Shown piece by piece: positions 4,311-23,800 of a stretch of DNA of 64,000 bases (its first letter is position 1; each line of letters starts with the position of its first letter). The notes beneath the pieces were generated by a model. It had not been told where the DNA came from and did no database searches. It saw only the letters and a program-made list of their open reading frames with translations. Origin of the DNA: Synechococcus sp. PCC 6312 (GTDB lineage: Bacteria; Cyanobacteriota; Cyanobacteriia; Thermosynechococcales; Thermosynechococcaceae); the NCBI RefSeq assembly GCF_000316685.1, contig NC_019680.1:1117501-1181500 (forward strand). Reading direction: 5' to 3'. A program made the position numbers and the translations under genes.

Positions 4311-4832
4311 ATGCAGCGTTCTTGGTTTGACCAACTTCCTGAGACTCACCGTTCTGCCATTCGCAATCTATTCCCGGATTTGCGCCATCGCCCGGTTGAG
4401 GATTGGCACCAGGCCGTGTGTGATTATTTCCTTGCTAATTCCCTCAGTCCGTTTCCGTCCCAAACGGCGGTGTGGCGGCAATTTCGCAGTTTTGAACGCC
4501 TGGAGCGACAACGGGAGGCTTATCAGATTGCGGGGGAGGTCTGTGCGGCGGGGGAAACGGAGGGGCTGCTGGAGGCAAGTGAGCGAATCTTGCTGGCCGA
4601 GTTGCTCTTTGCCGCTGAGGAGTTCCGCTCGGAAGATTTGAGTCCGAAGGATAGAACGCGGGCCTTGCGAGATTTGGCAGCAGCAAAGAACGGTCTCAGT
4701 AATTCTCGGAAAACGGATTTGGAGCTAAAGCATAAGGTTGAGGCGAAGTTGACAGACCTGGAGAAAACCCGCCAAAAGCTTGACCCGGAAACCCTGCGAG
4801 TGGTGATGGAGGAACTGATTGGAATCCTCTAG
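4311..4832 (+). CDS. small terminase subunit (DUF3486, Mu gp27-like)
   Basis: A 173-residue helical protein at the gp27 position. It begins with LPETHRSAIRNLFPD, then VCDYFLANSLSPFPSQTAVWR and a long alanine/glutamate-rich helical region, as in DUF3486 proteins that act as small terminase subunits and recognise phage DNA for packaging. It overlaps the large terminase gene by 14 bases. Identification rests on the family pattern and the neighbour. Confidence 0.8.
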   Translation: MQRSWFDQLPETHRSAIRNLFPDLRHRPVEDWHQAVCDYFLANSLSPFPSQTAVWRQFRSFERLERQREAYQIAGEVCAAGETEGLLEASERILLAELLFAAEEFRSEDLSPKDRTRALRDLAAAKNGLSNSRKTDLELKHKVEAKLTDLEKTRQKLDPETLRVVMEELIGIL

Positions 4833-6165
4833 CCTGATTGAGCTTTACCCCTATCAGAAGCGATGGTTGACCGATGCCAGCCGCTTCAAGATTGGGATGT
4901 TTTCTCGTCAGACTGGCAAAACGTTTACCACCTGCCTGGAGATTGTGCTGGACTGCCTGAAAACGGAAGCAGAAGGGGGGCGGGCCCGATGGGTGATCCT
5001 TAGCCGGGGAGAACGCCAGGCCAAGGAAGCGATGGATGAGGGCGTGAAGCGGTTTTTGAAGCTCCTCAATGTCCTATTTGAGGCCCACGATTACGACTGG
5101 GAGGGCAGTTTTAAGGCTCTGGAGGTTGAGCTTCCCGGTGGCTCAAAAATTACGGCTCTCCCGGCTAACCCAGACACGGCCCGTGGGTTTTCCGCTAACT
5201 GTTTCTTAGATGAATTTGCTTTCCATAAAGACAGTCGGGCAATTTGGCAGGCCCTGTTTCCGGTGATTTCCAAGCCAGGCCTGAAGCTCAGAATCACCAG
5301 TACCCCCAACGGCAAGGGCAATAAGTTCTACGAGCTAGTTACCGCTGCCGAGGAAAGACGGGATGAAACGCCTTGGAGCTTGCACCGAGTTGATATTTAT
5401 CAAGCCGTGGCCGATGGGTTGCCCCGTGATATTGAGCAACTCCGCAAAGCCTTGAATGACCCGGATTCCTGGAGCCAGGAGTTTGAACTGGAGTGGCTAG
5501 ATGAGGCGAGTGCGTGGCTGACCTATGAGCTAATCAATGCCGTTGAGCATTCGGATGCTGGCAAGCCTGACCTCTACACCCATCAGCCGGTTTATCTGGG
5601 GTTAGACCTAGCGGTGCGCCGGGATTTGTGGGTGGCCACGGTGCTGGAGCCAGTTGGGGATGTCCTGTGGTCTCGGGAAATTGTCGCCAAGCGGCGGCCC
5701 AGTTATGCCGAGCGGGAGGCGATTGTTGTAGGGCTGTTTGAGCGGTATCGGGTGGGGCGGTTGTGTATTGACCAGACGGGGCTGGGTGAGGATATTACTG
5801 TCCGATATCAGAAGCTGTTTGGCGAGTTTCGGGTCGAGGGGATTTTGTTTACTACGCCCAATAAGCTGGTGCTGGCTAATGGGATTAAGGAAGCCTTTGA
5901 AGACCGCAAAATCCGCATCCCCATTGACCCGCAACTGCGGGAAGACTTGCACAAAATCAAGAAAATTGTCACCCCAACAGGAGCGATGCGGTTTGATGCC
6001 GATTCAGATAGCCAGGGCCACGCTGACCGCTTTTGGTCGTTGGCCTTGGCAATTCAGGCAGCCAGTTCCCCGGCGGCTCCGATTGAGTTTCACGCTTTAG
6101 AGCCAGATGCCCCGGATTTGACCGGCTGGGCTGATGAATTGTCGCTGATCGGAGGGGGTTGGTAA
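4819..6165 (+). CDS. large terminase subunit (Mu gp28-like)
   Basis: A 448-residue packaging motor. The ATPase half shows a Walker A-like SRQTGKTF at about 29-36 and Walker B FLDEF at about 129-133, followed by the coupling motif STPNGKGN. The C-terminal nuclease half has the acidic positions of the RNase H fold: LGLDLAVRRD, RLCIDQTG and DSQGHADRFWSLALA. It would cut and pump phage and flanking host DNA into the prohead. The start is TTG inside the preceding gene. The portal ATG overlaps the stop. Confidence 0.9.
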   Translation: MESSSLIELYPYQKRWLTDASRFKIGMFSRQTGKTFTTCLEIVLDCLKTEAEGGRARWVILSRGERQAKEAMDEGVKRFLKLLNVLFEAHDYDWEGSFKALEVELPGGSKITALPANPDTARGFSANCFLDEFAFHKDSRAIWQALFPVISKPGLKLRITSTPNGKGNKFYELVTAAEERRDETPWSLHRVDIYQAVADGLPRDIEQLRKALNDPDSWSQEFELEWLDEASAWLTYELINAVEHSDAGKPDLYTHQPVYLGLDLAVRRDLWVATVLEPVGDVLWSREIVAKRRPSYAEREAIVVGLFERYRVGRLCIDQTGLGEDITVRYQKLFGEFRVEGILFTTPNKLVLANGIKEAFEDRKIRIPIDPQLREDLHKIKKIVTPTGAMRFDADSDSQGHADRFWSLALAIQAASSPAAPIEFHALEPDAPDLTGWADELSLIGGGW

Positions 6166-8867
6166 TGTTTCCTCACGTCCAGGTCAAGGCCCCTAGTTTC
6201 TCTGAAATTGCCACCGTTGACGGCGAGCGGGACATTACCCGGAGTTGGCTGGGGGAATTGCTCGACTCTCAAGACCCGATTGTGCGGTTGCGGGGGCACG
6301 GGCGGCTGGAGATTTACGACAAGGTTTTAGAGGATTGGCAGGTTCACAGCACGTTCCAGCAACGGCGGCGGGCGGTGACTCGCTATCGTTGGGAAGTTTC
6401 TCCCGGTTCCAGGCCCAATCAAGAACCCGGCCGGGCCGAGAAAATGGCGGCGGACTTTATCCGGGCAGTTTTGGACTCGATCAACTGGGATGACATCACC
6501 GATAAGAAACTCTACGGCGTGTTTTACGGCCATTCTGTAGCTGAGTGCATGTTTGCTCGGGATGGCAAGCAAATCATCCTGGACGATACGAAAGACGGGA
6601 TTCGAGTCCGTGACCGGAAGCGGTTTGTTTGGGATAAGAATTTTGGCTTGCGGCTGCTCACCCGTGAAAAGAGCCTCTACGGTGAACCGCTGCCCCCCTG
6701 CAAGTTTTGGGTGTTCAATACCGGCGGCGACCACAGTGACGACCCCAATGGGCGTGGTTTAGGCAGTTGGCTCTATTGGCCTGTGCTGTTTAAGCGGGAG
6801 CAAGTCAGGCTGGAACTGCGGTATTTAGATAAGTTTGCCGGGGGCAGTTTAATCGGCAAATATCCACCGGGGGCAACGCTGGCCCAGGTAAAAACCCTGA
6901 AGGAAGCGATGCAGCAACTCCGGTCTGGGGGCGGGGCGGCAATCCCTGAGGGGATGATGGTCGAGGTCTTGCAAGCCTCGGCCGCAGCCAGTTCCTACAG
7001 TGATTTTCAAGACCGGATGGATGAGTCCATCGCCAAGGTGGTACTGGGACAGGTGGGAACCTCGGAGGGCGTGGCAGGCCAGCATCGGGGTGAGATGCAG
7101 CATGATGTCCGGCAGGACTTGGTGATTTCCGATAGCGATTTAGTCTGTGGCTCGTTTAACAGGCAAGTGGTGAAGTGGCTCACCCATTGGAACTTTCCCG
7201 GTGCTGTGCCCCCCCAGGTCTATCGCAAAATCGAGAACGACCCCGACCCAAATACCCAGGCCGACCGGGATACCAAAATCATTGGGCTTGGCTTTGCTCC
7301 GACTCTGGATTATGTCAAAGACCAGTATGGCGAGGGCTTTATTGGGGCGGGTGAGAAGGGTGATGGGGCGGGCGTGCCAGCGACGTTGCTCCCCAGCCTG
7401 GTGCAGGTGATTACGGCGGTGGCTGGAGGACAGATTACAGCTACGGCGGGGCGGCAAATCCTGGTCAATACGATCCCTGGAATTACGCCGGAGATGGCTG
7501 AAGCAATGGTCGAGGAGCCACCCCAAGAGCAAAGCTTGGATTCTCAGCTTCAGGGGGCGTTAGGGGGTGATGGCGCTGCCCCGAAAGATACTCAGCAACC
7601 TCAAGACCCACAGCAGGGGGATGCAGCGTTCAGTGCCTTGATTGACCAGATTCAGGGGTTGGTTGAGCAGCCGGAGTTTGCCCAGAAGAAGTGCAGTAAG
7701 GGCTATCCCTGTAAAAATGCTTGTATTTCAACGACCAAAAAGTGTAAGTCTCCTTTGCCAGGCCAGGCTTCGGATTTTGCGGGTTGGGTGTTGACGCAAA
7801 CACTTACAGGGGGGACTCTCAGTGCTGCCCAAAATCAAGCAGCCCAGGGCATAACTGTTGCACAAGGGCTTGGACTCGCTTCGACCCCCACAACTCCCCC
7901 ACCCCCGAGTGCATGGCAGAATTTACCCTCTACTTTGACCTTGCCCGCTCCACCTGCCCCTGCTCCAACTCCACCGCCGAAGAAGCCGAGAGCCAAGAAA
8001 GTCAAGGCTGCAACAAATGCGCCAACCCCGCCGTCTATTCCGGTAACAGGGACAGACCGACTGGCTGAGGCGATTAAAAACAACGATTTTGCGACAGTGG
8101 TGGCCGAGTCTGAGGCGATTTATCGAGATGCCAAGGCCTGGGCTAAGACCTATGTTGACGTAGCACGTGGAGATGTGGGTATTGATTTTAGAGCCGGAAC
8201 AACTCCGGGTAACTTTAATAAGCCCGACCCGATTCTCTCGGTTTTAATGCAGACCCGAACGGGTTTTGGCGACTTGCCAGAGGTGATATCCAGGCAGGAA
8301 ATGGAGCGAGAACTGGCTACAGGTAAGGACGTTCTTTATCGAGGATTCTCAAGTGAACGTGCCAGCTTCGATGCTCGATTTACTCAGTTAAAGACTGGCG
8401 AAGCCTTGGGTATGCACGGGATTTATGGGCATGGACTCTACACGGCCATTGCCAAAGGGGATGATAGCCTTGACCGTCAAAACGCCCACTCAACGGCTGT
8501 TGGCTATGATGGCCACGGGGTTGTCAAGATGATGCCCAAGGATGGCTTTGCAACCGTCAAGGACAGCCTCTTGAAAACTGAAACCAAGCGGACTCAGTTG
8601 GCGTTTGGGAAGTGGGCAACTAAAGAACGCAATAAGCTCTCTGACCAAGCCCAAGCTGATTTTGATCAGAAAGTGAAATGGGCGGAGCGGGTGATGTGGG
8701 GCGATGAAGGCAGTGCCGGCATTTCCGGCCGGTTTGCAGTTCTTAAAGGCTACGACATGGTTGATATTTCCGGCGTTTCCTATGATTCGAGCTACCGACT
8801 GTTGCTTAATCGCGCCAAGGTAAAAATTCAAGATGAGCGGGTTTCTCCCCGTGGAAAAACGATTTAA
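6165..8867 (+). CDS. portal protein (DUF935) with Cys-motif domain and ADP-ribosyltransferase-like C-terminus
   Basis: Residues 1 to about 450 are a DUF935/gp29-type portal (ITRSWLGELLDSQDPI, LYGVFYGHSVAE, FAGGSLIGKYPPGA, GTSEGVAGQHRGEMQHDV). At E504-F505-A506 the portal character ends and C510-x5-C-x3-C-x6-C begins, then a Pro/Thr-rich linker, then about 250 residues with LYRGFSSE (Arg726) and MHGIYGHGLYTA (750-761), resembling the NAD-binding signatures of ADP-ribosyltransferases. The usual C-terminal helical end of DUF935 is missing here and appears in the gene at 9281. At 900 residues it is far longer than the about 510 of Mu gp29. ATG at 6165 follows GGAGGGGG. The ART call is tentative. 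Confidence 0.85.
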   Translation: MFPHVQVKAPSFSEIATVDGERDITRSWLGELLDSQDPIVRLRGHGRLEIYDKVLEDWQVHSTFQQRRRAVTRYRWEVSPGSRPNQEPGRAEKMAADFIRAVLDSINWDDITDKKLYGVFYGHSVAECMFARDGKQIILDDTKDGIRVRDRKRFVWDKNFGLRLLTREKSLYGEPLPPCKFWVFNTGGDHSDDPNGRGLGSWLYWPVLFKREQVRLELRYLDKFAGGSLIGKYPPGATLAQVKTLKEAMQQLRSGGGAAIPEGMMVEVLQASAAASSYSDFQDRMDESIAKVVLGQVGTSEGVAGQHRGEMQHDVRQDLVISDSDLVCGSFNRQVVKWLTHWNFPGAVPPQVYRKIENDPDPNTQADRDTKIIGLGFAPTLDYVKDQYGEGFIGAGEKGDGAGVPATLLPSLVQVITAVAGGQITATAGRQILVNTIPGITPEMAEAMVEEPPQEQSLDSQLQGALGGDGAAPKDTQQPQDPQQGDAAFSALIDQIQGLVEQPEFAQKKCSKGYPCKNACISTTKKCKSPLPGQASDFAGWVLTQTLTGGTLSAAQNQAAQGITVAQGLGLASTPTTPPPPSAWQNLPSTLTLPAPPAPAPTPPPKKPRAKKVKAATNAPTPPSIPVTGTDRLAEAIKNNDFATVVAESEAIYRDAKAWAKTYVDVARGDVGIDFRAGTTPGNFNKPDPILSVLMQTRTGFGDLPEVISRQEMERELATGKDVLYRGFSSERASFDARFTQLKTGEALGMHGIYGHGLYTAIAKGDDSLDRQNAHSTAVGYDGHGVVKMMPKDGFATVKDSLLKTETKRTQLAFGKWATKERNKLSDQAQADFDQKVKWAERVMWGDEGSAGISGRFAVLKGYDMVDISGVSYDSSYRLLLNRAKVKIQDERVSPRGKTI

Positions 8868-8877
8868 GGAGATATGA

Positions 8878-9291
8878 ATGGACGCAAATCTAAAAAAGTT
8901 TTTTGCTGAAAACGGATTGGTTAATCAGCGGGGCGAGACTGTTGCCCCCCCGGATGATGATGTTGAGGGCTGGAAGCGGAATTATCGAGCCTTGATCCAG
9001 TGCTGGAACTTTATGCTGGATGAACAAGAGGCGGCTGTTGAAAATCGCCGGGCCAGCAAGTATTTGATGGGACTAAATTCTATCGGTTACGACTTTATGG
9101 ATGTGGAGGCAATGCTGAAACGCCACGGGCTAAATCCCAAGCAAGTGGAGCAAGAGATTTGTCAGAAGTTAGGTTGCCCGACCCTTGATAAGCGTAATGC
9201 CCAAAACAGGGAGTTTATGAAACGAATGGCTGCCCGCGATGGTGAGGAGCCTGGTTTTGTTGATGATTGGGAGGACGAGGATGAAGATTAA
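8878..9291 (+). CDS. small acidic protein after the ART-like domain (possible inhibitor or cargo)
   Basis: A 137-residue soluble protein with a strongly acidic tail (DDWEDEDED). AAGGAG lies six bases before the ATG at 8878. No family recognised. It sits between the ART-like end of the portal gene and the gene holding the displaced portal C-terminus, overlapping the latter by 11 bases. An immunity protein for the ART-like domain is a reasonable guess from position, size and charge, but nothing in the sequence proves it. Confidence 0.6.
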   Translation: MDANLKKFFAENGLVNQRGETVAPPDDDVEGWKRNYRALIQCWNFMLDEQEAAVENRRASKYLMGLNSIGYDFMDVEAMLKRHGLNPKQVEQEICQKLGCPTLDKRNAQNREFMKRMAARDGEEPGFVDDWEDEDED

Positions 9292-9802
9292 ACTACCTGA
9301 ATCGGTCACGCCCCAACAGTTCCAACAGATTGCCCCGGTGCTGATTCGAGCAATTTTGGCAGAGGGTTTTGGCGGTTGGGGCGGTAAAACCGATGGCCTG
9401 ACGTTTGCCGTTGCCAATGGTGAAATTACCGGCCAGTTTCGGGATGGACGGGGGCTTTACACCTATCGGCTGTGGCAAGAAAAGGGGCAGTGGCAGCGGG
9501 AGTTTGGCCCGATTGCTGGGGTGGAAGATATTAACTCACCCGAATTTGCGGCCCCTGACGCTCCTGAGCCTACCACTGCTGACCAGTTTGTAGCCCAGTT
9601 GCGGGACTCGGCCGGTGAGGTGATTGGGGGTTGGACTGACCAGATTAAGGAACTGCTAGAAGACACCACCGACCTGCCGGAATTTGCCGCCAAACTTTAT
9701 GACCTCTACCCGGATTTGCAGGGGGAGGAATTGACAGCGGTCATGGGTGAGGCGATGCTGGCAGCGAGTTGGGCCGGGGCGTTTGAGGCACAGGATGCCT
9801 GA
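9281..9802 (+). CDS. displaced portal C-terminal domain preceded by a cassette-end domain
   Basis: 173 residues in two parts. Residues 1-87 are homologous to residues 1-85 of the gene at 15608 (shared LPE-x-TP-x-Q, IxPxLxxxIL, GxF-xG, KGxW/EW, GV and the end EFAA). From E88-F89-A90-A91 the rest (AGEVIGGWTDQIKELL to LYPDLQGEELTAVMGEAMLAASWAGAFEA) looks like the helical C-terminus that normally closes DUF935 portals. I infer that this gene is the downstream half of an interrupted portal gene. ATG at 9281 follows GAGGACGAGG. Confidence 0.7.
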   Translation: MKIKLPESVTPQQFQQIAPVLIRAILAEGFGGWGGKTDGLTFAVANGEITGQFRDGRGLYTYRLWQEKGQWQREFGPIAGVEDINSPEFAAPDAPEPTTADQFVAQLRDSAGEVIGGWTDQIKELLEDTTDLPEFAAKLYDLYPDLQGEELTAVMGEAMLAASWAGAFEAQDA

Positions 9803-10937
9803 GGTTAATTACGCCCGTCTCCCCTTTGCCGATGCCATTGAGTTTTTTCGAGGCAAGGTCAACGCCGATACGGATCGCTGGGATGACATTTGGCAGGAGC
9901 AGCATGACACTCAGTTTGTGGTGGCCGGGGCCAAGGGAGCGATTCTCCAGGATTTTCGAGAGGCGGTGGAGAAAGCCATTGCTGAGGGCATGAGTCGGGC
10001 GGATTTTTTGCAACAGTTTGACCAGATTGTGGCGACCAGGGGCTGGGACTATAAAGGCGGTCGGGATTGGCGAGCCAACCTGATTTACGGGACGAACCTG
10101 AGAACGGCTTATGCGGCGGGGCGACATCAGCAGCAAACGGAGCCAAGCCAGTTAAAACGCCGTCCCTACTGGGGGTGGCAGCACGGCGATACTCGCAACC
10201 CAAGGCCCTTGCACCTGGCGTTAGACGGTAAAGTTTTTCGGGCTGACGACCCGTTTTGGCAGACTATGTACCCTCCCGCGGACTGGGGCTGTCAGTGCCA
10301 GGTGGTGAGTTTGTCAGAGCGGGATTTGCGGCGGTTGGGTAAGGACGAGCCGGATATTCCGCCGATTGTCGGGGGGATTATGTCAGCCTTTGACCCGAAA
10401 ACGGGAACGATGTTGGCGGCAAGGGTAGAGGCGGGAGCGGGCTGGGATTATGTGCCTGGCCAGTCCAATATCCAGCAACGGCGGCAACAGGTTCTGAAGC
10501 GGTTAGACCCGGCGTTGCAAGGGCAGATAATGGCAGAAGTCCAAGGGCCAAGTAATTTATCTGGTACAAATCAGGGACAGATTCGGGCTGGAAATACGAT
10601 GGCTGGTAGAACTCCTCCTCCTGGAATTGTGAGAAATTCGAGGTTTGTAAGCCGTCATTTACCTCAAGGCAGAGATGCTCAAAAACTTTTGCAACAAGGG
10701 AAGGCGGCCCATGTTTTCTTGGATGAAGCCACAATGAGTCGGGTTGAGTCTGACCTGCTTGCTCGTGGAGAATTTGCTGGTACTGTGCGGGGGCATGACC
10801 GCTATGGACTTGGCTACCCAGAGCCTATTGGGTATAGAATTGCCCCAGATGGGGAGAGGCAATCGCTATATTATGCCGAACTGAAAGTTAAAGATGGAGA
10901 ATACCATGCCGTCCCTCGAAACAAGCCTGCCACCTGA
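9795..10937 (+). CDS. MuF / SPP1 gp7-type head protein with toxin-like C-terminal domain
   Basis: Residues 1 to about 250 are a MuF head-morphogenesis domain: YGTNLRTAYAAGRH at 98-111, RPYWGW, HLALDGKVFRADDPFW and the PPADWGCQCQV cysteine pair at 160-170. After a linker, residues about 275-380 form a separate domain (SRFVSRHL, AAHVFLDEATM, GTVRGHDRYGLGYPEPIGYRI, LYYAELKVKDGEYH) resembling toxin ends of MuF polymorphic toxins known from temperate phages. MuF proteins ride in the capsid, so the tail domain could be delivered with DNA. A small gene overlaps its end. The catalytic activity is unknown. Confidence 0.85.
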   Translation: MPEVNYARLPFADAIEFFRGKVNADTDRWDDIWQEQHDTQFVVAGAKGAILQDFREAVEKAIAEGMSRADFLQQFDQIVATRGWDYKGGRDWRANLIYGTNLRTAYAAGRHQQQTEPSQLKRRPYWGWQHGDTRNPRPLHLALDGKVFRADDPFWQTMYPPADWGCQCQVVSLSERDLRRLGKDEPDIPPIVGGIMSAFDPKTGTMLAARVEAGAGWDYVPGQSNIQQRRQQVLKRLDPALQGQIMAEVQGPSNLSGTNQGQIRAGNTMAGRTPPPGIVRNSRFVSRHLPQGRDAQKLLQQGKAAHVFLDEATMSRVESDLLARGEFAGTVRGHDRYGLGYPEPIGYRIAPDGERQSLYYAELKVKDGEYHAVPRNKPAT

Positions 10938-14375: not shown

Positions 14376-14711
14376 GGTGAAAATCTCAAAAACTGTAGAG
14401 GCAGTCGTTTGTTTTGTGGAGCGGGTGACTGGAACCCTTGGAAAATACTTGGCCCCGGTTTTACAAGCGGACTGGCTACCGGCTTTGGTTGGGTGGGAGA
14501 TTTTCTTGCCCCTCTCCCTAGGACACCCTGGCTATCAGGGTCACGGTCTGAGCCGTGGAAGCCGTTTCCGGCGTCGGGGTGTGTCCCCTTGCATATCTAA
14601 ACGTTAAACCCGCAAACCCAGAACCGTCAAGGGGTTAAAGATCAGGGTTGCTTATGGAAGGGTGTGCTTTGGGCATTTTCCGTTGATGTATTGTATGCAA
14701 AACCCCGATCC
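14376..14711. other. non-coding stretch with adjacent small hairpins
   Basis: No convincing gene. Two short stem-loops follow one another: ACCCTG-gctat-CAGGGT at 14523-14539 and CACGG-tctgag-CCGTG at about 14542-14557, then GGAA-gccg-TTTCC. They lie between the divergent minus-strand gene and operator copy 3. They could be transcription-stop or structured leader elements, but no poly-T follows. Short open frames in this stretch look accidental. Confidence 0.35.
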
Positions 14712-14732
14712 TTAGACATTTGTCCTGTTGTT
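14712..14732 (+). promoter_or_regulatory. repeated phage operator/promoter motif, copy 3
   Basis: TTA followed by GACATTTGTCCTGTTGTT: 20 of 21 bases match copies 1 and 2, and the GAC-N4-GTC dyad is intact. Ends 30 bases before the protease ATG, so it likely drives the protease, scaffold and capsid block. Confidence 0.6.
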
Positions 14733-14762
14733 GAAACGGGGACGGGGCGGGATTTTAGGGGT

Positions 14763-15608
14763 ATGAAGCCGATTAAATTACCGTTTCTCGTCAAAGGCAC
14801 CCATCCGGCCACTAACGGCCGCTCCTATACGTTTGGCGATTCTGAAATTGAGGGTATTCGGGAATACGACCCCACCCTGCGCCGGGCCCCGATTGTGATT
14901 TCCCACGACCTGAAGGGCCTGGATGAGGCTGAAATCCTAAAAAACAAGAAATTGTCCGATGAATTGGCGTTTGGGTTGATTGAAGGTGTGGTACTGGAAA
15001 ACGGCGTTCTCAAGGCGAAGTCCAACCGTTATGTCCCCAAGATTTTGGATTGGTTCAAAGAGGGCCGGATTGCGCAGATTTCAGCCAAGTTTTTCTCGCC
15101 AACCGACCCGCAAAATCCCAAGCCGGGGAAATATTACCTCCGGCACGTTGCCCTGTTGGGGGTGAGTCCCCAGGCGATGGAGAATTTGCCAGGCCCTGAG
15201 TTTGCCCAATTTAATCCTGAAGGAGAAGCGTCTGTGGAGATTGAATTTGCCGTGAAAGGTGCTGGTGCTGGCAAGAAGAAGAAGTGTCAAAAGGGCTGGA
15301 GTTGCGGGGCGGGGTGTATTTCCCGGACGAAGCGGTGTCCGAGTGCCTTGGGGAGTGAAGCAAAAAGTTACGCCGGGTATTTAAGGCGGCAGCTTTCTCG
15401 AATCGGAGTCAAAAACAAAGACGAGAGGCAGGAGTCCAGAACCGAAGCTGCGGCATTTGAAGACTTAATTGCAGGGCCTGGCAAGAAAAATAGCAAGGCG
15501 AATCAGAAGTCCCGCACGGCAGCGATCAAGCAAGCAAATAGCTCAGAGGTTAAACGTGCAGCCGCCGAATACCGTCGTGCTGAACGCCGCTTAGGGAGGA
15601 ATCAGTAA
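14763..15608 (+). CDS. head maturation protease (Mu gpI-like), C-terminally replaced by Cys-motif cassette
   Basis: Residues 1 to about 160 match the Mu gpI protease: RSYTFGDSEIEGI, DPTLRRAPIVISHD, ELAFGLIEGV, ISAKFF and YYLRHVALLGVSPQAM. At E161-F162-A163 the family match ends. A glycine/lysine linker and C175-x5-C-x3-C-x6-C follow, with the same cysteine spacing as in the portal gene, then about 100 basic, alanine-rich residues. The scaffold half normally fused behind the protease is encoded by the next gene. ATG at 14763 lies 30 bases after operator copy 3. The stop overlaps the next ATG. Confidence 0.8.
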   Translation: MKPIKLPFLVKGTHPATNGRSYTFGDSEIEGIREYDPTLRRAPIVISHDLKGLDEAEILKNKKLSDELAFGLIEGVVLENGVLKAKSNRYVPKILDWFKEGRIAQISAKFFSPTDPQNPKPGKYYLRHVALLGVSPQAMENLPGPEFAQFNPEGEASVEIEFAVKGAGAGKKKKCQKGWSCGAGCISRTKRCPSALGSEAKSYAGYLRRQLSRIGVKNKDERQESRTEAAAFEDLIAGPGKKNSKANQKSRTAAIKQANSSEVKRAAAEYRRAERRLGRNQ

Positions 15609-16363
15609 TGGTTAATCTGCCCGAAAACCCCACGCCAGAGCAACTCAACAAGATTATCCCCATCCTGGTCAAAGAAATCTTGAGGAGTGGCGAGCGGAAT
15701 TACAGAGACGCAATCGAGAACATTACCTGGCAGCGCAAAGGCGAAGGCATCGAAGGCACGTTCGAGACGGGTAAAGACGTTTTCGGTTATTCCCTGATGC
15801 CCAAGGGTGAGGAATGGTACCGGGATATGTGGGTGATTTCGGGCGTGGACGATGAGGGCGCAGAATTTGCGGCCGCCGACGGCGATGAGGATTTGGACTT
15901 TGAGATTACGGGAGAGGGTATGGACGCAAACGACCGGGCGGTGATTGAAAGTATGGCCCTGCAAGAACGGGAGCAGGCCCTGGCAGAGAAGGAATTGGCG
16001 TTTGCGTTGCGGCAGGAGTCGTTGGCGGTGATTCAGCCGTTGGTGGGTAAGAAGATTCCCCCGGCCTGGGAGGATGACCTGGTGCAATTTAGAGCGGCGA
16101 TTGGGGCGGCAGCGGGGCCTGGGGATTTGGAATTTAGCCAAGGCAGTTACAGCCCGGTCGCGTTTTTCGATCGGTTTCTGGAATCGTTGCCGGAGCAAAT
16201 CGAATTCTCGGAAATTGCGGGTGGCGATGGGGCTGTGGTGGGAGCCGACGACGCTCAAGCCATTGCCAATGCGGCCATCGAATTCCAGCAAGAACAGCGG
16301 TCTAAGGGCATTGAAATTTCGACTGTTACGGCCGTTGCTCACGTTATTGGGAAGGACAAGTAA
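15608..16363 (+). CDS. scaffold half of gpI, preceded by a cassette-end domain
   Basis: 251 residues. Residues 1-85 are homologous to the N-terminus of the gene at 9281 and end at the same EFAA (86-89). The remainder is scaffold-like: a long charged helix (ALQEREQALAEKELAFALRQESL), a helical bundle and the closing ISTVTAVAHVIG seen at the end of Mu-type protease/scaffold proteins. Protease residues 1-163 plus this remainder give about 325 residues, close to Mu gpI (361), which supports a split gene. GGGAGG precedes the start. Confidence 0.7.
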   Translation: MVNLPENPTPEQLNKIIPILVKEILRSGERNYRDAIENITWQRKGEGIEGTFETGKDVFGYSLMPKGEEWYRDMWVISGVDDEGAEFAAADGDEDLDFEITGEGMDANDRAVIESMALQEREQALAEKELAFALRQESLAVIQPLVGKKIPPAWEDDLVQFRAAIGAAAGPGDLEFSQGSYSPVAFFDRFLESLPEQIEFSEIAGGDGAVVGADDAQAIANAAIEFQQEQRSKGIEISTVTAVAHVIGKDK

Positions 16364-17133: not shown

Positions 17134-18057
17134 ATGGCAGACTACCCTTTTGTTGAACAACCCCAATACACGGCGATTGCCCTGGCTTATACCAACCAGG
17201 CCATGATTGCTGACATTATTAGCCCCCGGATTCCAGTTACCGAGGAATCTTTTAAGTGGCAAAAACACAAACTGGAAGACGGTATGACGATAGTCGACAC
17301 CCGTGTCGGTCGCACGTCTCGCCCAAATCAGGTTGAGTTCGCAACCACAGAAGAAACGTCTTCCTGTGAAGATTACGGGCTAGATGACCCTATCCCCCAA
17401 AAGGATATTGAGAACGCCCCTAAGGGCTACGACCCGCAATCCTATTCAACCGAGATGCTGACCGAGTTAATTCAGATCGACCGCGAAAAACGCGTGGCGG
17501 ATCTGGTCTTTAATCTCAATACCTACCCCAGCGCCCAGCGACAGACCCTAGCTGGTTCCAGTCAATTTTCCCACCCCGACTCCAAGCCGATTGATGTGAT
17601 GCTGAATGCCCTCGACGAAATGGTCATGAGGGCCAATACAGCGGTGTTTGGGCAAAATACCTGGACTAAGTTTCGCCGCAATCCTGCTGTGGTTAGCGCG
17701 ATTAATGGCAAAAACAGCAGTGAATCCGTCACTCGTCAGCAAGTTGCAGAATTTCTGGAAGTGGATCGGGTGATAGTTGGCGCAAGCTGGCTGAACTCTG
17801 CGAAAAGGGGACAGTCCGCATCAATGACCCGCCTCTGGGGCAAGCATATTGCTCTGCTGTATCTCAAGCCGTTGGCGGCTTACACCAGGGGGATTACGTT
17901 TACGTTTACCGCCCAACACGGACAACGGGTTGCCGGGACGATTCAAGACCCCCATATCGGACTGAAAGGTGGCGTGATTCAGCGGGTCGGCGAATCGGTT
18001 AAAGAAGTGATCGCAGCTCCTGATTGTGGCTATTTCTTCCAGGATGCGGTGGCCTAA
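17134..18057 (+). CDS. major capsid protein
   Basis: 307 residues with the layout of Mu-type and P22-like major head proteins: YTNQAMIADIISPRIPV, a long acidic loop, IDREKRVADLVFN on the spine helix, and the P-domain segment DRVIVGASWLNSAKRG followed by LWGKHIALLYL. It comes after protease, scaffold and decoration genes, as expected. AGGAG precedes the ATG. Family assignment rests on position and general pattern; the exact fold class cannot be told by eye. Confidence 0.8.
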   Translation: MADYPFVEQPQYTAIALAYTNQAMIADIISPRIPVTEESFKWQKHKLEDGMTIVDTRVGRTSRPNQVEFATTEETSSCEDYGLDDPIPQKDIENAPKGYDPQSYSTEMLTELIQIDREKRVADLVFNLNTYPSAQRQTLAGSSQFSHPDSKPIDVMLNALDEMVMRANTAVFGQNTWTKFRRNPAVVSAINGKNSSESVTRQQVAEFLEVDRVIVGASWLNSAKRGQSASMTRLWGKHIALLYLKPLAAYTRGITFTFTAQHGQRVAGTIQDPHIGLKGGVIQRVGESVKEVIAAPDCGYFFQDAVA

Positions 18058-18058
18058 G

Positions 18059-18349
18059 ATGGCAAATTCCAAAGTCCTGAGCCAACTGCACCACAACGGC
18101 ACGCTTTACGCCCCTGGCGTGGAAGTGGAGCTACCCCGAGAAATCCAGGCCAGGTTAGCGGAATTGGGGGTGATTGAAATTCTCCCAGAAGCTAATCAGA
18201 CCCTTGGGACTGATTCTGCAAGCGAAGAAAAAGAAACCCCTGAACAACCCGAGGTCGAAATGGCAGTCGAAGCCCCGCCCAAAAAACAGCCCACCCCCCG
18301 GAAACGGCCAGCCCCCAAACCAACAGCCCAAGGAGAAAGCGGTGAATAA
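18059..18349 (+). CDS. DUF7210-like small head-region protein
   Basis: A 96-residue protein. The start (LHHNGTLYAPGVEVELPREIQARLAELGVIE, split here as one domain of about 35 residues) matches small Mu-like proteins with the pattern LHxxGxxYxPGxExxL. The rest is Pro/Glu/Lys-rich and probably disordered. Its ATG overlaps the capsid stop region and the HU-like gene begins before its stop. Likely a minor head-tail joining or assembly factor. Confidence 0.6.
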   Translation: MANSKVLSQLHHNGTLYAPGVEVELPREIQARLAELGVIEILPEANQTLGTDSASEEKETPEQPEVEMAVEAPPKKQPTPRKRPAPKPTAQGESGE

Positions 18350-18620
18350 GTCCAAACTAATCGAAGTGGCGGCCGAGGCTGCTGAGTTTACGAAAAAAGA
18401 CATGGAAATTGCCCTCAATGCCGTCTTGGATGCCATCCAAAATGCCGTGGCCGCTGGCTCTGAGGTGAAATTGGTCGGATTTGGTACGTTCAAGCCGATT
18501 TTTGCCCAGGCCCGTGAGGGTCGCAATCCCCAGACGGGTGAAAGTATCAAGATATCGGCTACTCACAAGCCTGTGTTTCGGGCGGGTCAAGGGTTCAAGG
18601 ATAAGGTGGCTCGGCGATGA
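18342..18620 (+). CDS. HU-family DNA-binding protein
   Basis: A 92-residue HU/IHF-type protein: NKSKLIEVAAEAAEFTKKD at the N-terminal helices, LVGFGTF, the beta-arm segment REGRNPQTGESIKI and the end KPVFRAGQGFKD. Such proteins bend DNA, and in Mu transposition host HU and IHF assist the transpososome, so a phage copy could serve packaging or transposition. The GTG at 18342 is used because AAGGAGAAAGC lies just upstream; it overlaps the previous gene by eight bases. Confidence 0.9.
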   Translation: MNKSKLIEVAAEAAEFTKKDMEIALNAVLDAIQNAVAAGSEVKLVGFGTFKPIFAQAREGRNPQTGESIKISATHKPVFRAGQGFKDKVARR

Positions 18621-19057
18621 ACTACTGCACGGCTGAGGACTTAATCGCTCGGTTTGGTGAGCCTGAGTTGATCCGGCTGACAAATACCGGACTGCCAGGG
18701 GCAACCGAAATTAACTCGGAACGCCTGGAATCTGCGATTGAGCGACAAAGCCGGGTGATGGATGCGTTTATTGCCGTCAAAAACCAGTTGCCCTTGCCGG
18801 AAGTGCCCCCAGTCTTGGTGAGTTTCTGTTGCGACCTGGTGCGCTCGGATTTAGACAATAAACGGGAACGGGAAGAGGTCAAGCAACGGCGGGAAGAAGC
18901 GATGACGTTTCTGAAGCAACTAGCCAAGGGTGAGGCCACGCTGGGAATTGCTGCGGATGCTGAAGAAAAACCGGCCACGGCCGAGCCAATCCTTGTTTAC
19001 GGGACGGCTGAATCTTTGGACGAAGAACCCTTAGACCAAGCCCTGAGGTGGTTTTAG
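18617..19057 (+). CDS. DUF1320 head-tail connector (Mu gp36-like)
   Basis: 146 residues opening with YCTAEDLIARFGEPELIRLT, the standard DUF1320 start, followed by helices (SAIERQSRVMDAFI), an LPEVPPVLVSFCCDLVRSDL core and a helical tail ending in acidic residues. Mu gp36 proteins form part of the neck between portal and tail. ATG overlaps the HU stop; the gp37-like gene follows without a gap. Confidence 0.85.
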   Translation: MNYCTAEDLIARFGEPELIRLTNTGLPGATEINSERLESAIERQSRVMDAFIAVKNQLPLPEVPPVLVSFCCDLVRSDLDNKREREEVKQRREEAMTFLKQLAKGEATLGIAADAEEKPATAEPILVYGTAESLDEEPLDQALRWF

Positions 19058-19507
19058 ATGGGGCTGCGAACCGCGATTGAGCAGGATATTGTGGCGGCCT
19101 TGGCTCCCTTGCAGGAGTTGGGCGTGTTTGTGGTGGATTGCCCAGAGGAAAGCCGCAAGTCGGGCGAAGTGTTTGACGTGGGCCAGGTTTCTGTCGGGTT
19201 TACTGGCGAAACAGCCGAGGCCCCGCTGTCACTGCCTGTTCACGGCACACCCCTGATTCAGCCTTTTTCTATGAGCTTTGAGGTTCACTTAGAGCTTCAG
19301 GACGACAACCACCGCAAAGCCGCCAACCTGATTGACCAGGTGGAAGAGTTGGTGAACGGGCTAATCCCCACAGGGCAAGACAAGCCGCTGTATTTTATCC
19401 GGTCTGGTTTTTTGCAGTTGGATAGTGAGTCGATTTGGCATTATGCCGTGATTTTTGGGTTTCAAGTGGTTAAAAAATCTCATCTCAAGGAGGCGGTAAA
19501 TGCTTAG
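19058..19507 (+). CDS. tail terminator-like protein (DUF1834, Mu gp37-like)
   Basis: 149 residues at the gp37 position, with a helical opening (LRTAIEQDIVAALAPL), a beta core (GQVSVGFTGETAE, FSMSFEVHLELQDDNHRKA) and the closing strand IWHYAVIFGFQVV. The layout fits minor tail or tail terminator proteins that join head and tail. Assignment relies on position and the general pattern. Confidence 0.7.
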   Translation: MGLRTAIEQDIVAALAPLQELGVFVVDCPEESRKSGEVFDVGQVSVGFTGETAEAPLSLPVHGTPLIQPFSMSFEVHLELQDDNHRKAANLIDQVEELVNGLIPTGQDKPLYFIRSGFLQLDSESIWHYAVIFGFQVVKKSHLKEAVNA

Positions 19508-20270
19508 TGGAGTCGGTCGGTTAGCCCTAATTACCCGCAGTTTGTCTGCGACTGCGATTGCTCAGGAGTTGATGATTCCGGGCAAGTTTAGTCAATTTAA
19601 CTTGAATGTGGAGACGGAAAACAAAAAGGCCGAGGCCTGGATTGACGGGGTGAAAGAAAACGTTTCCAGCGCAATCGGCAAGCGGACAACAACCTTGCAG
19701 CTTGCGTTCCAGTATCTCGACTGGTTCCACCTCCAATTAGCCCAAGATGAACTGGCGACCAATGTCAACGTCACTTTGCCGATTTACAAGACCGTGACAG
19801 TGCCGGCCACCCCGTTCAAGATTACGGATGCTGACATTTCTTCGGCTGGGATTGCCAGTTCAGTCAAGGCCTATGTGACGGATCGGGGGAGTTGGGGCGA
19901 GGCGGGTTATTTGGTCGCGGAAAGCGGGACACTGGCGGCACGGGAGTTTGAGGCTGACCACACTGACACTTCGATTACCTTTCACTCTGGCCTGGCGGGC
20001 GCAAGTGTTACCTATGTGGTGGATAAGGCGTTTACCAGTATCCCCAGTATTGGCAAAGCCCCGGATGCAATCAAGATTGGCGAAGTCTCGTTTATTGGCA
20101 AGGGCTACGGGCCGGAATTTCCCAACGGGGTGTTTATCCACATTCCTAGCCTGACCCGCTCTGGCTCCCCCAGTTTGCAAACCGACGACGTTCCTACCTT
20201 TGAAATTCCCTTTGATTGCAACGTGGCCAGTGGCTACCGTACCCCAGTGCAGTATTACCGCTTGCCCTAG
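19500..20270 (+). CDS. tail tube protein candidate
   Basis: 256 residues, mainly beta, in the slot between the tail terminator and the tape-measure chaperone. ELMIPGKFSQFNLNVETENKKAEAWIDG resembles the opening of siphovirus tube proteins. An inserted domain (about 100-170, SVKAYVTDRGSWGEAG, TSITFHSGLAGASVTYVV) may be an Ig-like decoration. No sheath gene is nearby, which supports a non-contractile tail. Confidence 0.6.
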   Translation: MLSGVGRLALITRSLSATAIAQELMIPGKFSQFNLNVETENKKAEAWIDGVKENVSSAIGKRTTTLQLAFQYLDWFHLQLAQDELATNVNVTLPIYKTVTVPATPFKITDADISSAGIASSVKAYVTDRGSWGEAGYLVAESGTLAAREFEADHTDTSITFHSGLAGASVTYVVDKAFTSIPSIGKAPDAIKIGEVSFIGKGYGPEFPNGVFIHIPSLTRSGSPSLQTDDVPTFEIPFDCNVASGYRTPVQYYRLP

Positions 20271-20293
20271 TTTTCTCCTCGATTGAGGTCTTG

Positions 20294-20878
20294 ATGTTTG
20301 CCACCTTCCCCCGCCTGGAATTTGAAGACCGCTGTGGCGTGATTCGTGGCCTGGCGGGGTGTTCGCTGATTGGGCGGCAGGAGTTTTTTGAGCGGTTGCA
20401 GCAGGTTCAACAGCGACTTCAGGAATTACCGGAGCTTTCCACTGTGGCCGAGCTTTACGATACCGATACTCGCTTTCGGCACTACTGCGACCGTTGCCTG
20501 ATTCTTAACGGACTAGACCCAGATTGGCTGACCATGTCCATGTTGGAGGAAATGCTTTTTGTCAGGGTTGTGGAAGGAGAGACCCGGCCTGGCTTGCTGA
20601 CTGAGCTAAACCAGCCACCCAAGTCGTCAAAACCCACCGATGAACCCGCCACGCTCCACGAAATCCTGGCATCTCTGGCTACCCACGAAAAAAGCCTGGG
20701 TGATGCCCTCAAGCTGGCTTCTGACCTGAATTTACCCGCCAACGATTTGCTGGAAATCCTCACGGCTCGCTCTGAGTTGGAGAAATCCGCAGACCCCGAA
20801 TACCGCAAGAAAAAACAACAGAAGGCCTGGCAGGAAAAAGCCTTGGCAGATTTGACCGGAGGGATGCCCAATGGCTGA
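20294..20878 (+). CDS. tail assembly chaperone candidate
   Basis: A 194-residue helical protein between the tube and tape-measure genes, the standard place of tail assembly chaperones. It has EFFERLQQVQQRLQEL, YCDRCLILNGLDPDWLTMSMLEEMLF and a basic C-terminal helix (EYRKKKQQKAWQEKAL). I see no slippery heptamer near its end, so no frameshifted longer product is claimed. ATG at 20294 is preferred over an upstream start at 20216 that lies inside the tube gene. Confidence 0.55.
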   Translation: MFATFPRLEFEDRCGVIRGLAGCSLIGRQEFFERLQQVQQRLQELPELSTVAELYDTDTRFRHYCDRCLILNGLDPDWLTMSMLEEMLFVRVVEGETRPGLLTELNQPPKSSKPTDEPATLHEILASLATHEKSLGDALKLASDLNLPANDLLEILTARSELEKSADPEYRKKKQQKAWQEKALADLTGGMPNG

Positions 20879-23800
20879 CCTGAAAACCAGGCTGATCTTT
20901 TCCGCAGAGGGCACAGGCCGGACTGTGGGCGAAATCCGGCAACTCCAGAACGAACTGAAGCGAACCGGGCAGGAAGGAGCGCAATCGATCCAACAGTTGG
21001 ACACAGTGAATACTCGTCTGGTGGGAAGTGTTCAGGAGTTGGCTGCCAAATATTACCTGGTGATTAGCGCACTCCAGGGGATTGTCGCTGCTGCCAGGCC
21101 TGCCTACGACCTTCTGATTGGGCAAAACGAACGCCTGCAACAGCAAATCTTAGGCACAGCCGCCAGCGTTTCGGCAACCAACCGAGTGTTTCAGGACGGG
21201 TTTCAGATTGCCGACCCGACCGAGGCGATTACCGCCGTTACCCCTTTGATTGAGCAATCCCTAGCCAAAATCCGTAAAGGCTCCCTGGAGTTGGTGGGTG
21301 TCACCTCTGGGCAGTTAGTAGACAGCTACCAGATTATTGCTGGGCAGACGGGGGAACTGGACATCAACCTAGACCAAGCCGCAGACCTCACCCTAGACTT
21401 TGCTGCCGCCCTCGGAACCCTCGGAATTCCGCTCTTCCAGGCCCGCCAAGAGATTACCTCAATTGCCCAAGGGACGATTGACCAAAACTCCATCCTGGCC
21501 AAGACCCTAGGGTTGACCAACGATCAGGTGAAAACCCTGAAAGAGCAAGGGCGGCTCTACGATGTTTTGCGGGAGAAATTAGCCGCCTTCCGGGCCGGGA
21601 ATGCACTTGCCGCAAACAGTATTGACGGGATCACCAGCAACATTCAAGAGCTTGTGGAGTTACTGGGCCTGGAGCTGGGTGCACCACTGCGAGAGCAAAT
21701 CCTGGGGCCATTAGCCGATATTTTTGAGTTCCTCAACAGCAAGTCCGAGCAAATCACTGAGTTCCTCCGGGAAGTGATTAACCTGTTTGACGATATTGGG
21801 GCCTCAATTCGCGACAGCCTGGGGAACAGTTTTTCTCAGTTAGAAGCAGCCCTAGCCCCCATCCAAGAACGATTGGTTGCGCTGTGGGCAGATGGCACGA
21901 TTCAGAACGGTTTGCGTGACCTGGGGGCGGCGATTGGGCAAATTATCGAACTATTTTTTGAGTGGCAAGCCCTGCTGACTCAACTGATTGGGCCGCAAAT
22001 CCAAACCCTCCTGACCCTATTGCCCTTTGTCCTGAAAGGGGCGGCGGCATTGCTCTCCGGCATTTCGTTGACCTTACAGGCCATTGTTCGAGGGATTGCG
22101 ATTCTGGTGGATGCGGTGCTTTCGTTCCCAAGGCTCATTGCTGACATTGGCCGGTCAATCACCAGCACCTTTGGGCTTGGCAAGGAATCAGTTGATCGGT
22201 TCTTTAGAGCCTTGGTTAACGGTATCTCAGACCCCAGAATTAGGTTGTTGCTCAAGTTATTGGGAGTCTCTATCGCTGAGTTGGGCGATAACTTTGACCC
22301 CATAGTGGAAAAGGCAAGGGATGCCACTGATGCGATTGTCAGGGAGACCGAACGCTTGCAGAGTGAGCTGGCCAGTGGTGCAGCCGGAGCCTCAGGTAAG
22401 ATTGGTGAGCAGATTAAAAAGATTGACGCTCAAATTGAGTCCCTACGCCGTTCCACTGTTGAGGGCAGAGCCAACCGAGAGGAAGTGCAGCGGCAAATCA
22501 CCGTCCTAGAGGAACTCAGACGGGCCTTGGCTGGGGCAGCGACCGGAACTGAGGTGCTGGTGTCGTTTCAAAAAGAGCAAGAGCGCACCCTTAAGGAAAT
22601 TGAACGGCTGACCAAGAAATTCTCCACCACCCTTGAGCTTGAGGAGCAAGAGCGACAAAACCGGATCACTGAGATAGCCAATGCAGGACTGGAGAGTAGT
22701 AACGAGATTGAACGCCAGAAACTGGAATCTAAACGGCAGCGAATTGAACAGGAACTTGCCTTTGAACGGGAAAACCTGGCTAAGATTGAGGCTCTCCAGG
22801 GCGACCCTGATGAGCGGGAATCAGCGATTCGAGATGCCAAGCTCAAGACCGCCAAACTGGCCGGGCAATTATTGGAAAACGAAGCCCAACAACAAAAACA
22901 GGGGATTGCCGAAATCGAACAGGTCACTAAAGAATCCCTGCAACGGTTGCAACTAGCAGAACAGGAGCGACAAAACCAAATCCAGGAACTCCTGAACCAG
23001 GGCTTAATTCGCCAAGACCAGGCCGAGCGTAAACGGTTGCAATCCACCCGTGAGCGCACTGAGGCAGAATTTAAGGCCGAACAGGAGAAACTGGACAAAC
23101 TGGAAGCCGCCGAGGGAAACAACGCTGAAGCTATTGCCGCCCAGAAACAAAAGCTGGCAGAGATTACGGGACGGTTACTCGAAAACGAATTCCAGCAACA
23201 GCAAAAGCTTCGTGACCTGATTATCAAGAAAATCACCGAAGCCGAACAGTTGCAAGCTAGGTCTGCGGATCTGCAAGCCAAACGCCTCGAACGACTGATT
23301 ACCCTGGCTGGGCAGCAGGAGCGAGTATTTCAATCCCAGGTATCGCTGCAACAGGCCCTAGACCGTCTGACTAAGAGCCGATTTGATCTGGCCACGGCTA
23401 CGGCTGAGACTGAACTGGAGGCCTTGAAAAAGGCGGGGGCTTCTCAGGATCAGATTGAGCGCAAAGAGAAGCAGATCCAAGACCTGAAGCTCCAAGCCAT
23501 TCAAGCCAGCCAATTGGCGGCTCAGCGGGAGCTTGAGTTCCAGATTCAGGCCGAGATTCGGGCGAATAAACGTTTAGAAATTGAAGCCAAAATTGCCGCA
23601 CTCAAGGCTAAGTCCGAAGTGGTCTCCCAGCAAGCCGCCCTGGAAAAACTGAAGCTCAATCCGGAAGCCACCCCAGAGCAAATTAAACAGGCTCAAGAAC
23701 TCCTAGACCTGACCCGACAACAAGCGGCCGAAGCTGAAAACCTGGTCACTCTCGCCCAGCAAGAGGGAACGCAAATTCAGCAAACGGCCCAGATTCGGCG

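What the first reader, a model, noticed from the sequence alone, without database searches (positions are those of the whole stretch)
7692..8867. ADP-ribosyltransferase-like domain fused to a portal protein
After the cysteine motif and a Pro-rich linker, residues about 640-900 contain LYRGFSSE (Arg726) and HGIYGHGLYTA (about 751-761), reminiscent of the Arg and HG-x-G-x-Y-A signatures in ADP-ribosyltransferases and PARPs. T4 injects ART enzymes from its capsid, so an ART on the portal could enter the host with DNA.
Basis: inference. Interest (0 to 1): 0.6.

Follow-up and report, generated by a model that had tools for sequence, protein, structure and literature searches.

The report
Portal protein carrying ADP-ribosyltransferase-fold cargo
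A virus hidden in a cyanobacterial genome has, fused to the ring protein through which its DNA passes, a domain shaped like the NAD-using enzymes of the diphtheria-toxin/PARP superfamily; relatives of the domain ride on head proteins of many other phages, so it is probably a tool the virus carries in its particle, although nobody has shown that it is an active enzyme.

Summary
ORF 6165-8867 is a Mu-type portal (PF06074, E 1e-91) with a four-cysteine motif, a Pro-rich linker and a ~260-aa C-terminal domain that hits nothing in Pfam, PHROGs, NCBIfam, PADLOC or PDB sequences. I found relatives in Nostoc and other cyanobacteria, a planctomycete, Gordonia and Bacillus phages, Prochlorococcus phage P-SS2 and about 40 viral contigs, mostly C-terminal on portal, MuF/minor-head or neighbouring proteins. 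AlphaFold2 models (pLDDT 83.5 and 90) match almost only ADP-ribosyltransferase (ART) folds: diphtheria toxin, exotoxin A, PARPs, AcrIF11, and an ejection protein of cyanophage A4. Arg726, Tyr759, Asp864 and Arg883 are invariant in 38 sequences; the histidines of HGIYGHG are not, and the classical catalytic acid is absent. So the ART fold is well supported, catalysis is plausible but open, and NAD use, target and delivery are untested. Virion location is supported by published mass spectrometry of P-SS2 particles: gp030, which bears this domain, was among the most-detected proteins. Fusing ARTs to portal/MuF proteins is a known phage strategy; this is an unannotated, divergent ART family on a cyanobacterial prophage portal.

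The parts
6165..8867 (+). whole ORF, 900 aa from ATG 6165: portal + Cys motif + Pro linker + ART-fold domain
   Evidence: same architecture in L030 and L025
6306..7331 (+). Portal_Mu (PF06074) domain
   Evidence: E 1.3e-91; PHROG portal phrog_113 E 3.5e-88
7692..7745 (+). four-cysteine motif CSKGYPCKNACISTTKKC
   Evidence: equivalent motifs precede the cargo in L004, L017-L019, L021, L023, L025, L026, L020 and, in a longer form, L030-L032
7746..8036 (+). Ala/Pro-rich linker
   Evidence: sequence
8037..8864 (+). ART-fold domain (core from about 8214)
   Evidence: AlphaFold2 pLDDT 83.5, pTM 0.84; PDB matches almost all ART superfamily; compact homologue pLDDT 90
8340..8342 (+). codon of Arg726 (first-strand active-site position)
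   Evidence: 38/38 conserved; aligns with the His of YHG in ART-PolyVal proteins
8415..8447 (+). HGIYGHGLYTA, residues 751-761, with invariant Tyr759
   Evidence: 38/38 conserved Tyr and Gly; aligns with GxGxY of ART-PolyVal proteins
8754..8813 (+). Asp864 (GYD) to Asn882-Arg883 (LNR): C-terminal strands
   Evidence: Asp 38/38, Asn 37/38, Arg 38/38; the residue at the usual catalytic acid position is aromatic or Gly in 37 counted members
8878..9291 (+). small acidic ORF directly after the portal-ART gene; candidate immunity or accessory protein (inference)
   Evidence: small ORFs also follow the cargo gene in L017, L018, L020, L021, L030; no family hit

Best explanation
The C-terminal ~260 residues of this prophage portal protein are a virion-borne cargo domain of the ADP-ribosyltransferase fold. 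Shown by computation: it sits on a real Mu-type portal, it belongs to a widespread phage family found mostly on head proteins or beside the portal gene, and its predicted fold is ART, closest to the diphtheria-toxin/exotoxin A/PARP side. Inferred: because portals are dodecamers whose C-termini face the capsid interior, up to twelve copies would lie inside the head next to the DNA. The domain would be released from the portal, perhaps by cleavage in the Pro-rich linker, and enter the cell with the DNA. There it would bind NAD with Arg726, Tyr759 and Asp864/Arg883 around the pocket and modify a host macromolecule, or consume NAD, early in infection, in the way T4 Alt acts. The small downstream ORF may protect the lysogen.
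For: Portal identity. Same portal + Cys + ART architecture in viral contig L030, portal + N-domain + Cys + DUF3626 + ART in L025, portal + ADPrib_exo_Tox + ART in L024. Independent fusions to other portals plus MuF (L022, L036, L056) and to MuF/minor-head proteins (L069, L070, L075, L086, L100). In Nostoc genomes the cargo is a separate gene 17-72 nt (271 nt in L017) after the portal gene. Fold. Invariant Arg, Tyr, Asp, Arg. Partner domains that are ARTs: ADPrib_exo_Tox in L024; DUF3626 in L004, L022, L025, L029 and L065, the domain of the ART effector SopF (PMC6682159; PMC10333799). Virion: P-SS2 gp030 = MuF + Zeta_toxin + this domain, listed with 96.5 peptides in the mass spectrometry of purified particles (PMC2784084). 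Precedents: PMC9503650, PMC5576092, PMC11699363.
Against: No sequence hit to any ART family. Fold Z-scores are middling (5-7), below the 8 at which a match stands on its own, and no Foldseek PDB hit reaches E 0.001. The classical catalytic acid is missing in 37 of 37 counted members, and Arg replaces the His of the nearest ART clade. Nothing shows cleavage from the portal, injection, NAD binding or a target. The P-SS2 evidence is for a MuF-borne homologue, not for a portal fusion.
Confidence: 0.6

Rival explanations
1. ART fold without catalysis: the domain binds NAD, ADP-ribose, nucleic acid or a protein partner, like catalytically dead PARPs such as PARP13, and serves head assembly, DNA ejection or sensing.
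For: Classical catalytic acid replaced by Tyr/Phe or Gly in all counted members; His position is Arg; PARP13 is among the structural matches.
Against: Arg, Tyr, Asp and Arg are invariant over very diverse phages, which fits an active pocket better than a scaffold; the domain keeps company with ART, Zeta-toxin and 2'-5' RNA ligase-like domains in the same chains; mono-ARTs without the acid exist (general knowledge of PARP10/14-type enzymes).
Confidence: 0.25
2. Polymorphic toxin of the MuF type, deployed by the lysogen's phage against non-lysogenic kin, with ORF 8878-9291 as immunity protein.
For: Carrier-plus-variable C-terminus logic of MuF toxins (PMC5576092), antibacterial ART Bxa with immunity proteins (PMC11699363), small ORF right after the cargo in several phages.
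Against: The small ORFs have no family hit and I have not shown that they are related to each other; no toxicity data.
Confidence: 0.3
3. The domain acts inside the producing cell before or during assembly (anti-defence, superinfection exclusion, or modification of packaging components) and is not delivered.
For: PMC9503650 raises this alternative for ARTs beside packaging genes; a portal stays in the particle.
Against: P-SS2 gp030 with this domain is abundant in finished virions; the cargo is often a separate gene next to the portal or on MuF, which is a head protein.
Confidence: 0.2
4. Not an ART at all; the motif resemblance is chance and the fold match a common arrangement.
For: Z below 8; Hsp90 chains with a GxFGxGFY motif surface in the profile search of PDB at E about 0.3-1, showing that the glycine-tyrosine motif alone proves nothing.
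Against: For the compact homologue all 50 listed Foldseek and all 50 listed VIA rows are ART-superfamily proteins; nearly all for the window domain; profile alignment to ART-PolyVal proteins falls in register at Arg/His and GxGxY with P 0.0037 against 0.26-0.29 for reversed controls.
Confidence: 0.05

Closest known systems
ARTs fused to MuF/portal head proteins (Alt/VIP2 and N4-like families; Iyer et al. 2022, PMC9503650)
   Same: ART-fold enzyme carried C-terminally on a head protein of a portal-terminase phage, predicted to be delivered with DNA.
   Different: This family has Arg-Tyr without the classical acid and is not recognised by any Pfam ART model; here it is on a Mu-type portal of a cyanobacterial prophage.
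MuF polymorphic toxins (Jamet et al. 2017, PMC5576092) and Bxa (PMC11699363)
   Same: Variable C-terminal effector on a head-associated carrier in a prophage; some carriers of this very domain are MuF proteins.
   Different: The window carrier is the portal; the prophage's MuF is a separate gene (9747-10937) with DUF6972 at its end.
Polyvalent proteins with ART-PolyVal (PF18760) (Iyer et al. 2017, PMC5512222)
   Same: Strand-1 motif followed by GxGxY, ART fold; multi-effector chains in L025, L024, P-SS2.
   Different: Arg instead of His, no Asp/Glu at the end, LNR instead of the FxP ending; no Pfam hit. That paper reports few polyvalent proteins in cyanobacteria.
T4 Alt
   Same: Phage ART packaged in the head and injected (cited in PMC9503650).
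   Different: R-S-E clade and not attached to the portal.
Cyanophage A-4L tail protein gp27 (PDB 9k3a chain B, pre-ejectosome)
   Same: Structural match, Z 6.3-6.8, to its residues 1261-1607, which hold a YHGT...GSGTYFS ART-like signature.
   Different: Canonical His, ejection-type protein of a podovirus, no close sequence relation.

Membership tests
ADP-ribosyltransferase superfamily (fold) | split beta-sheet ART fold | tested here: met
   Two AlphaFold2 models; matches almost exclusively ART structures. Met at moderate strength: Z 5-7.
ADP-ribosyltransferase superfamily (activity) | NAD binding and ADP-ribosyl transfer or NAD hydrolysis | not testable with these tools
   needs biochemistry
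H-Y-[EDQ] ART clade | His on strand 1 | tested here: not met
   Arg in 38 of 38; aligns with the His column of ART-PolyVal
H-Y-[EDQ] ART clade | Tyr on strand 2 (GxGxY) | tested here: met
   38 of 38
H-Y-[EDQ] ART clade | acidic or Gln residue on the late strand | tested here: not met
   Tyr/Phe/Gly at that position in 37 of 37 counted; neighbouring position acidic in 8. L036, not counted, has Glu by eye; the window itself has Tyr by eye.
R-S-E ART clade | Arg on strand 1 plus STS and ExE motifs | tested here: not met
   Arg present, but no conserved Ser or Glu column in the 38-sequence alignment
ART-PolyVal (PF18760) | match to the Pfam model | tested here: not met
   no hit up to E 10 for any of 17 members
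Mu-type portal (PF06074) | portal domain above curated cut-off | tested here: met
   307.9 bits against 23.9
MuF polymorphic toxin | MuF domain on the toxin-bearing protein | tested here: not met
   no MuF domain in the window protein, though homologues L069, L070, L075, P-SS2 have it
MuF polymorphic toxin | cognate immunity gene next to the toxin | tested here: inconclusive
   small ORF 8878-9291 follows directly; no family, no functional data
Polyvalent protein | several unrelated effector domains in one chain | tested here: not met
   window protein has one cargo domain; L024, L025, P-SS2 meet it

The most novel reading that the evidence does not exclude
A previously undescribed ART clade with an Arg-Tyr-Asp-Asn-Arg pocket and no catalytic acid, present from cyanobacterial to planctomycete, actinobacterial and Firmicute phages, rides as twelve-copy cargo on the portal or on MuF, is freed from it, and is injected to ADP-ribosylate (or RNAylate) a host target by an acid-independent mechanism.
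Probability: 0.3. Interest if true: 0.75.

Novelty: new variant of a known kind. Interest (0 to 1): 0.58.

Why it matters
It gives a head-borne ART family that no searched library names, ties it to a portal in a cyanobacterial prophage (a group reported to have few polyvalent effectors, PMC5512222), and links it to an isolated Prochlorococcus phage whose particles were shown to contain such a protein. That makes the question of whether cyanophages inject ADP-ribosylating enzymes directly testable in culture. It also shows that portals, not only MuF proteins, serve as cargo platforms.

Tried and rejected
Direct database naming failed: Pfam, PHROGs, NCBIfam, PADLOC and PDB sequence searches of the domain gave only noise; the weak fvmX5 hit (E 0.055) and Hsp90 hits (E 0.3-1) were judged chance. 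tblastn of the window domain against phages and plasmids found nothing convincing; relatives came only through intermediate sequences. Hits L005, L006, L007, L008 in other cyanobacterial genomes (E 7e-4 to 7e-3) are unrelated proteins by their reading frames. Foldseek of the window model against PDB had pantothenate kinase at the top with TM 0.14, rejected as helix-only matches. The idea that a frameshift or assembly error joined portal and cargo was rejected because L025, L030 and L024 show the same fusion independently. I did not have model coordinates, so the clustering of Arg726/Tyr759/Asp864/Arg883 in one pocket was not measured.

Full report
WHAT IS THERE. The frame 6138-8867 holds one uninterrupted gene. 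Counted from ATG 6165 it is 900 aa, and the numbering then matches the finding: LYRGFSSE with Arg726, HGIYGHGLYTA at 751-761. The first part matches the portal of phage Mu (PF06074, 307.9 bits, E 1e-91; phrog_113). A four-cysteine motif starts at 7692, then an Ala/Pro-rich linker, then the domain in question, about 8037-8864. The gene lies in a Mu-like head module: terminase 4819-6165 (by position and sequence), MuF 9747-10937 (PF04233), protease-like 14664-15608 (phrog_976).

NO NAME IN THE LIBRARIES. The domain has no significant match in Pfam, PHROGs, NCBIfam, PADLOC or PDB sequences.

FINDING THE FAMILY. A first search of 386 cyanobacterial genomes gave two useful relatives, L003 and L004; Nostoc-type genomes gave more (6 of 217 genomes of one family). 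With alignments as queries, genome and viral collections gave L017-L027, L030-L038 and then about 40 viral contigs. Phage records gave Gordonia phage Phendrix/GodonK, Bacillus phage SP-15 and Prochlorococcus phage P-SS2. L003 is a broken copy with the two halves in different frames.

WHERE THE DOMAIN SITS. Portal_Mu + Cys motif + domain: window, L030. Portal_Mu + N-domain + Cys motif + DUF3626 + domain: L025. Portal_Mu + ADPrib_exo_Tox + domain: L024 from a planctomycete. Other portal types plus MuF plus domain: L022, L036, L056, the last with a 2'-5' RNA ligase-like domain. MuF or minor-head protein plus domain: L053, L069, L070, L072, L075, L077, L086, L100. Phendrix gp66 lies directly after the portal gene. 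In Nostoc L018-L021 a cargo gene (N-domain + Cys motif + DUF3626 + domain) begins 17-72 nt after a Portal_Mu gene and is followed by MuF (not seen in the L021 stretch). L074 has five copies in one frame. So the fusion in the window is natural, and the family is tied to the phage head.

FOLD. The window domain (17-row alignment) gave pLDDT 83.5, pTM 0.84. Of the 50 best VIA rows nearly all are ART-superfamily chains: diphtheria toxin, cholix, exotoxin A, tankyrase, PARP13, an RES toxin, RhsP2 (Z 5.0-6.6, 106-173 residues), and a cyanophage A4 pre-ejectosome chain. A compact homologue, L072 (28-row alignment), gave pLDDT 90.0, pTM 0.85; all 50 listed Foldseek hits (best E 8.7e-3, probability 0.97) and all 50 listed VIA rows (Z 5.3-6.8) are ART-superfamily proteins as I read their titles, with AcrIF11 (6kyf, titled only 'anti-CRISPR protein') classed from general knowledge and the A4 chain from its sequence. 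Each score alone is modest; the uniformity of the lists is the argument. A profile alignment with ART-PolyVal-type sequences falls in register: Arg726 on the His of YHG, Tyr759 on the Tyr of GxGxY, P 0.0037 against 0.26-0.29 for reversed controls. The A4 chain is gp27 of Anabaena phage A-4L and itself reads YHGT...GSGTYFS.

ACTIVE SITE. In 38 sequences Pro705, Arg726, Gly752, Gly755, Gly757, Tyr759, Asp864 and Arg883 are invariant and Asn882 nearly so (which prints numbers two higher because it counts from TTG 6159). SP-15, not in that set, has Lys at the Arg position by eye. The His residues of the finding vary. The late-strand catalytic acid of H-Y-E enzymes is absent: Tyr/Phe/Gly in 37 of 37 counted; the placement of that position rests on the predicted strands and is an inference. 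The family is thus neither H-Y-[EDQ] nor R-S-E in the sense of PMC9503650 and is best called an ART-fold family with an Arg-Tyr pocket. Activity is plausible, since acid-less mono-ARTs exist, but unproven.

COMPANY. DUF3626, found beside the domain in L004, L022, L025, L029 and L065 (below Pfam's curated cut-off in L025, L029 and L065), is the domain of Salmonella SopF (PMC6682159), a proven ADP-ribosyltransferase with an I-Y-E triad (PMC10333799). L024 has a Pfam-recognised ART. P-SS2 gp030 has MuF, Zeta_toxin and this domain. The domain keeps the company of effectors.

VIRION. P-SS2 gp030 (17648-22147 in the phage) was detected in purified particles: Table 2 of PMC2784084 lists it with 96.5 in the column where ORF 025 has 33, and the text says ORF 025 averaged 33 peptides; the authors called gp030 a capsid protein. 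This shows a protein with this domain in a virion; it does not show that a portal-borne copy is there, nor injection.

MECHANISM. Most likely the domain is cargo: displayed inside the head on the portal ring, released, delivered with DNA, and acting on NAD plus a host target. Steps shown: carrier, family, fold, conserved residues, virion presence of a relative. Steps inferred: copy number, release, injection, catalysis, target. The separate-gene version in Nostoc shows that covalent linkage is not essential. The Pro-rich linker would suit cleavage by the head protease, which carries the same cysteine motif (14664-15608); this is a guess.

KNOWN OR NEW. ARTs on MuF or portal proteins and their proposed injection are described (PMC9503650, PMC5576092), and a prophage MuF-type ART has antibacterial activity (PMC11699363). 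New here, as far as the searched libraries and open papers show: an unnamed, divergent ART family, its spread, and its place on a cyanobacterial portal. Whether it equals one of the ART families drawn in Iyer et al. 2022 could not be checked, because the supplements were not readable. Verdict: new variant of a known kind.

Noticed in passing
window 14664-15608: The head protease-like protein (phrog_976) carries the same four-cysteine motif (CQKGWSCGAGCISRTKRC) as the portal-ART protein; a shared docking or processing module in cyanobacterial Mu-like heads is possible.
   Followed up: partly
window 9239-9802: The end of this ORF matches the C-terminal tail of portal proteins in Nostoc loci and L030, as if cargo insertion had split the portal tail off; its start matches the start of ORF 15608-16363 (E 5e-16).
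   Followed up: partly
window 9747-10937: The MuF protein ends in DUF6972 (PF22319, E 1.6e-41), perhaps a second effector of the same prophage.
   Followed up: no
window 8878-9291: Small acidic ORF directly after the portal-ART gene without any family match; small ORFs occupy this place in other phages too.
   Followed up: partly
L119:2446-6945 (Cyanophage P-SS2 gp030): MuF + Zeta toxin + a region reading like a second, R-S-E type ART (VYRGMSF..., by eye) + this domain, in a protein abundant in virions and annotated as capsid in 2009.
   Followed up: partly
L040:20116-25269 (Anabaena phage A-4L gp27): Ejectosome 'tail protein' with solved structure (9k3a chain B) holds an ART-PolyVal-like signature YHGT...GSGTYFS that Pfam does not detect.
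   Followed up: partly
L074:3391-10521: One 2377-aa frame with five tandem copies of the ART-fold domain plus acetyltransferase-like repeats.
   Followed up: no
L018:4325-6484: A Nostoc Mu-type portal carries an inorganic pyrophosphatase domain (PF18823, E 9e-28) after the portal domain: another portal used as cargo platform.
   Followed up: no
L024:4704-8624: A Gemmataceae prophage portal bears two ARTs in series: ADPrib_exo_Tox (E 7e-13) and this family.
   Followed up: partly
L003:1345-2003: A broken copy of the domain in a cyanobacterial chromosome, halves in different frames: a decaying prophage remnant.
   Followed up: no
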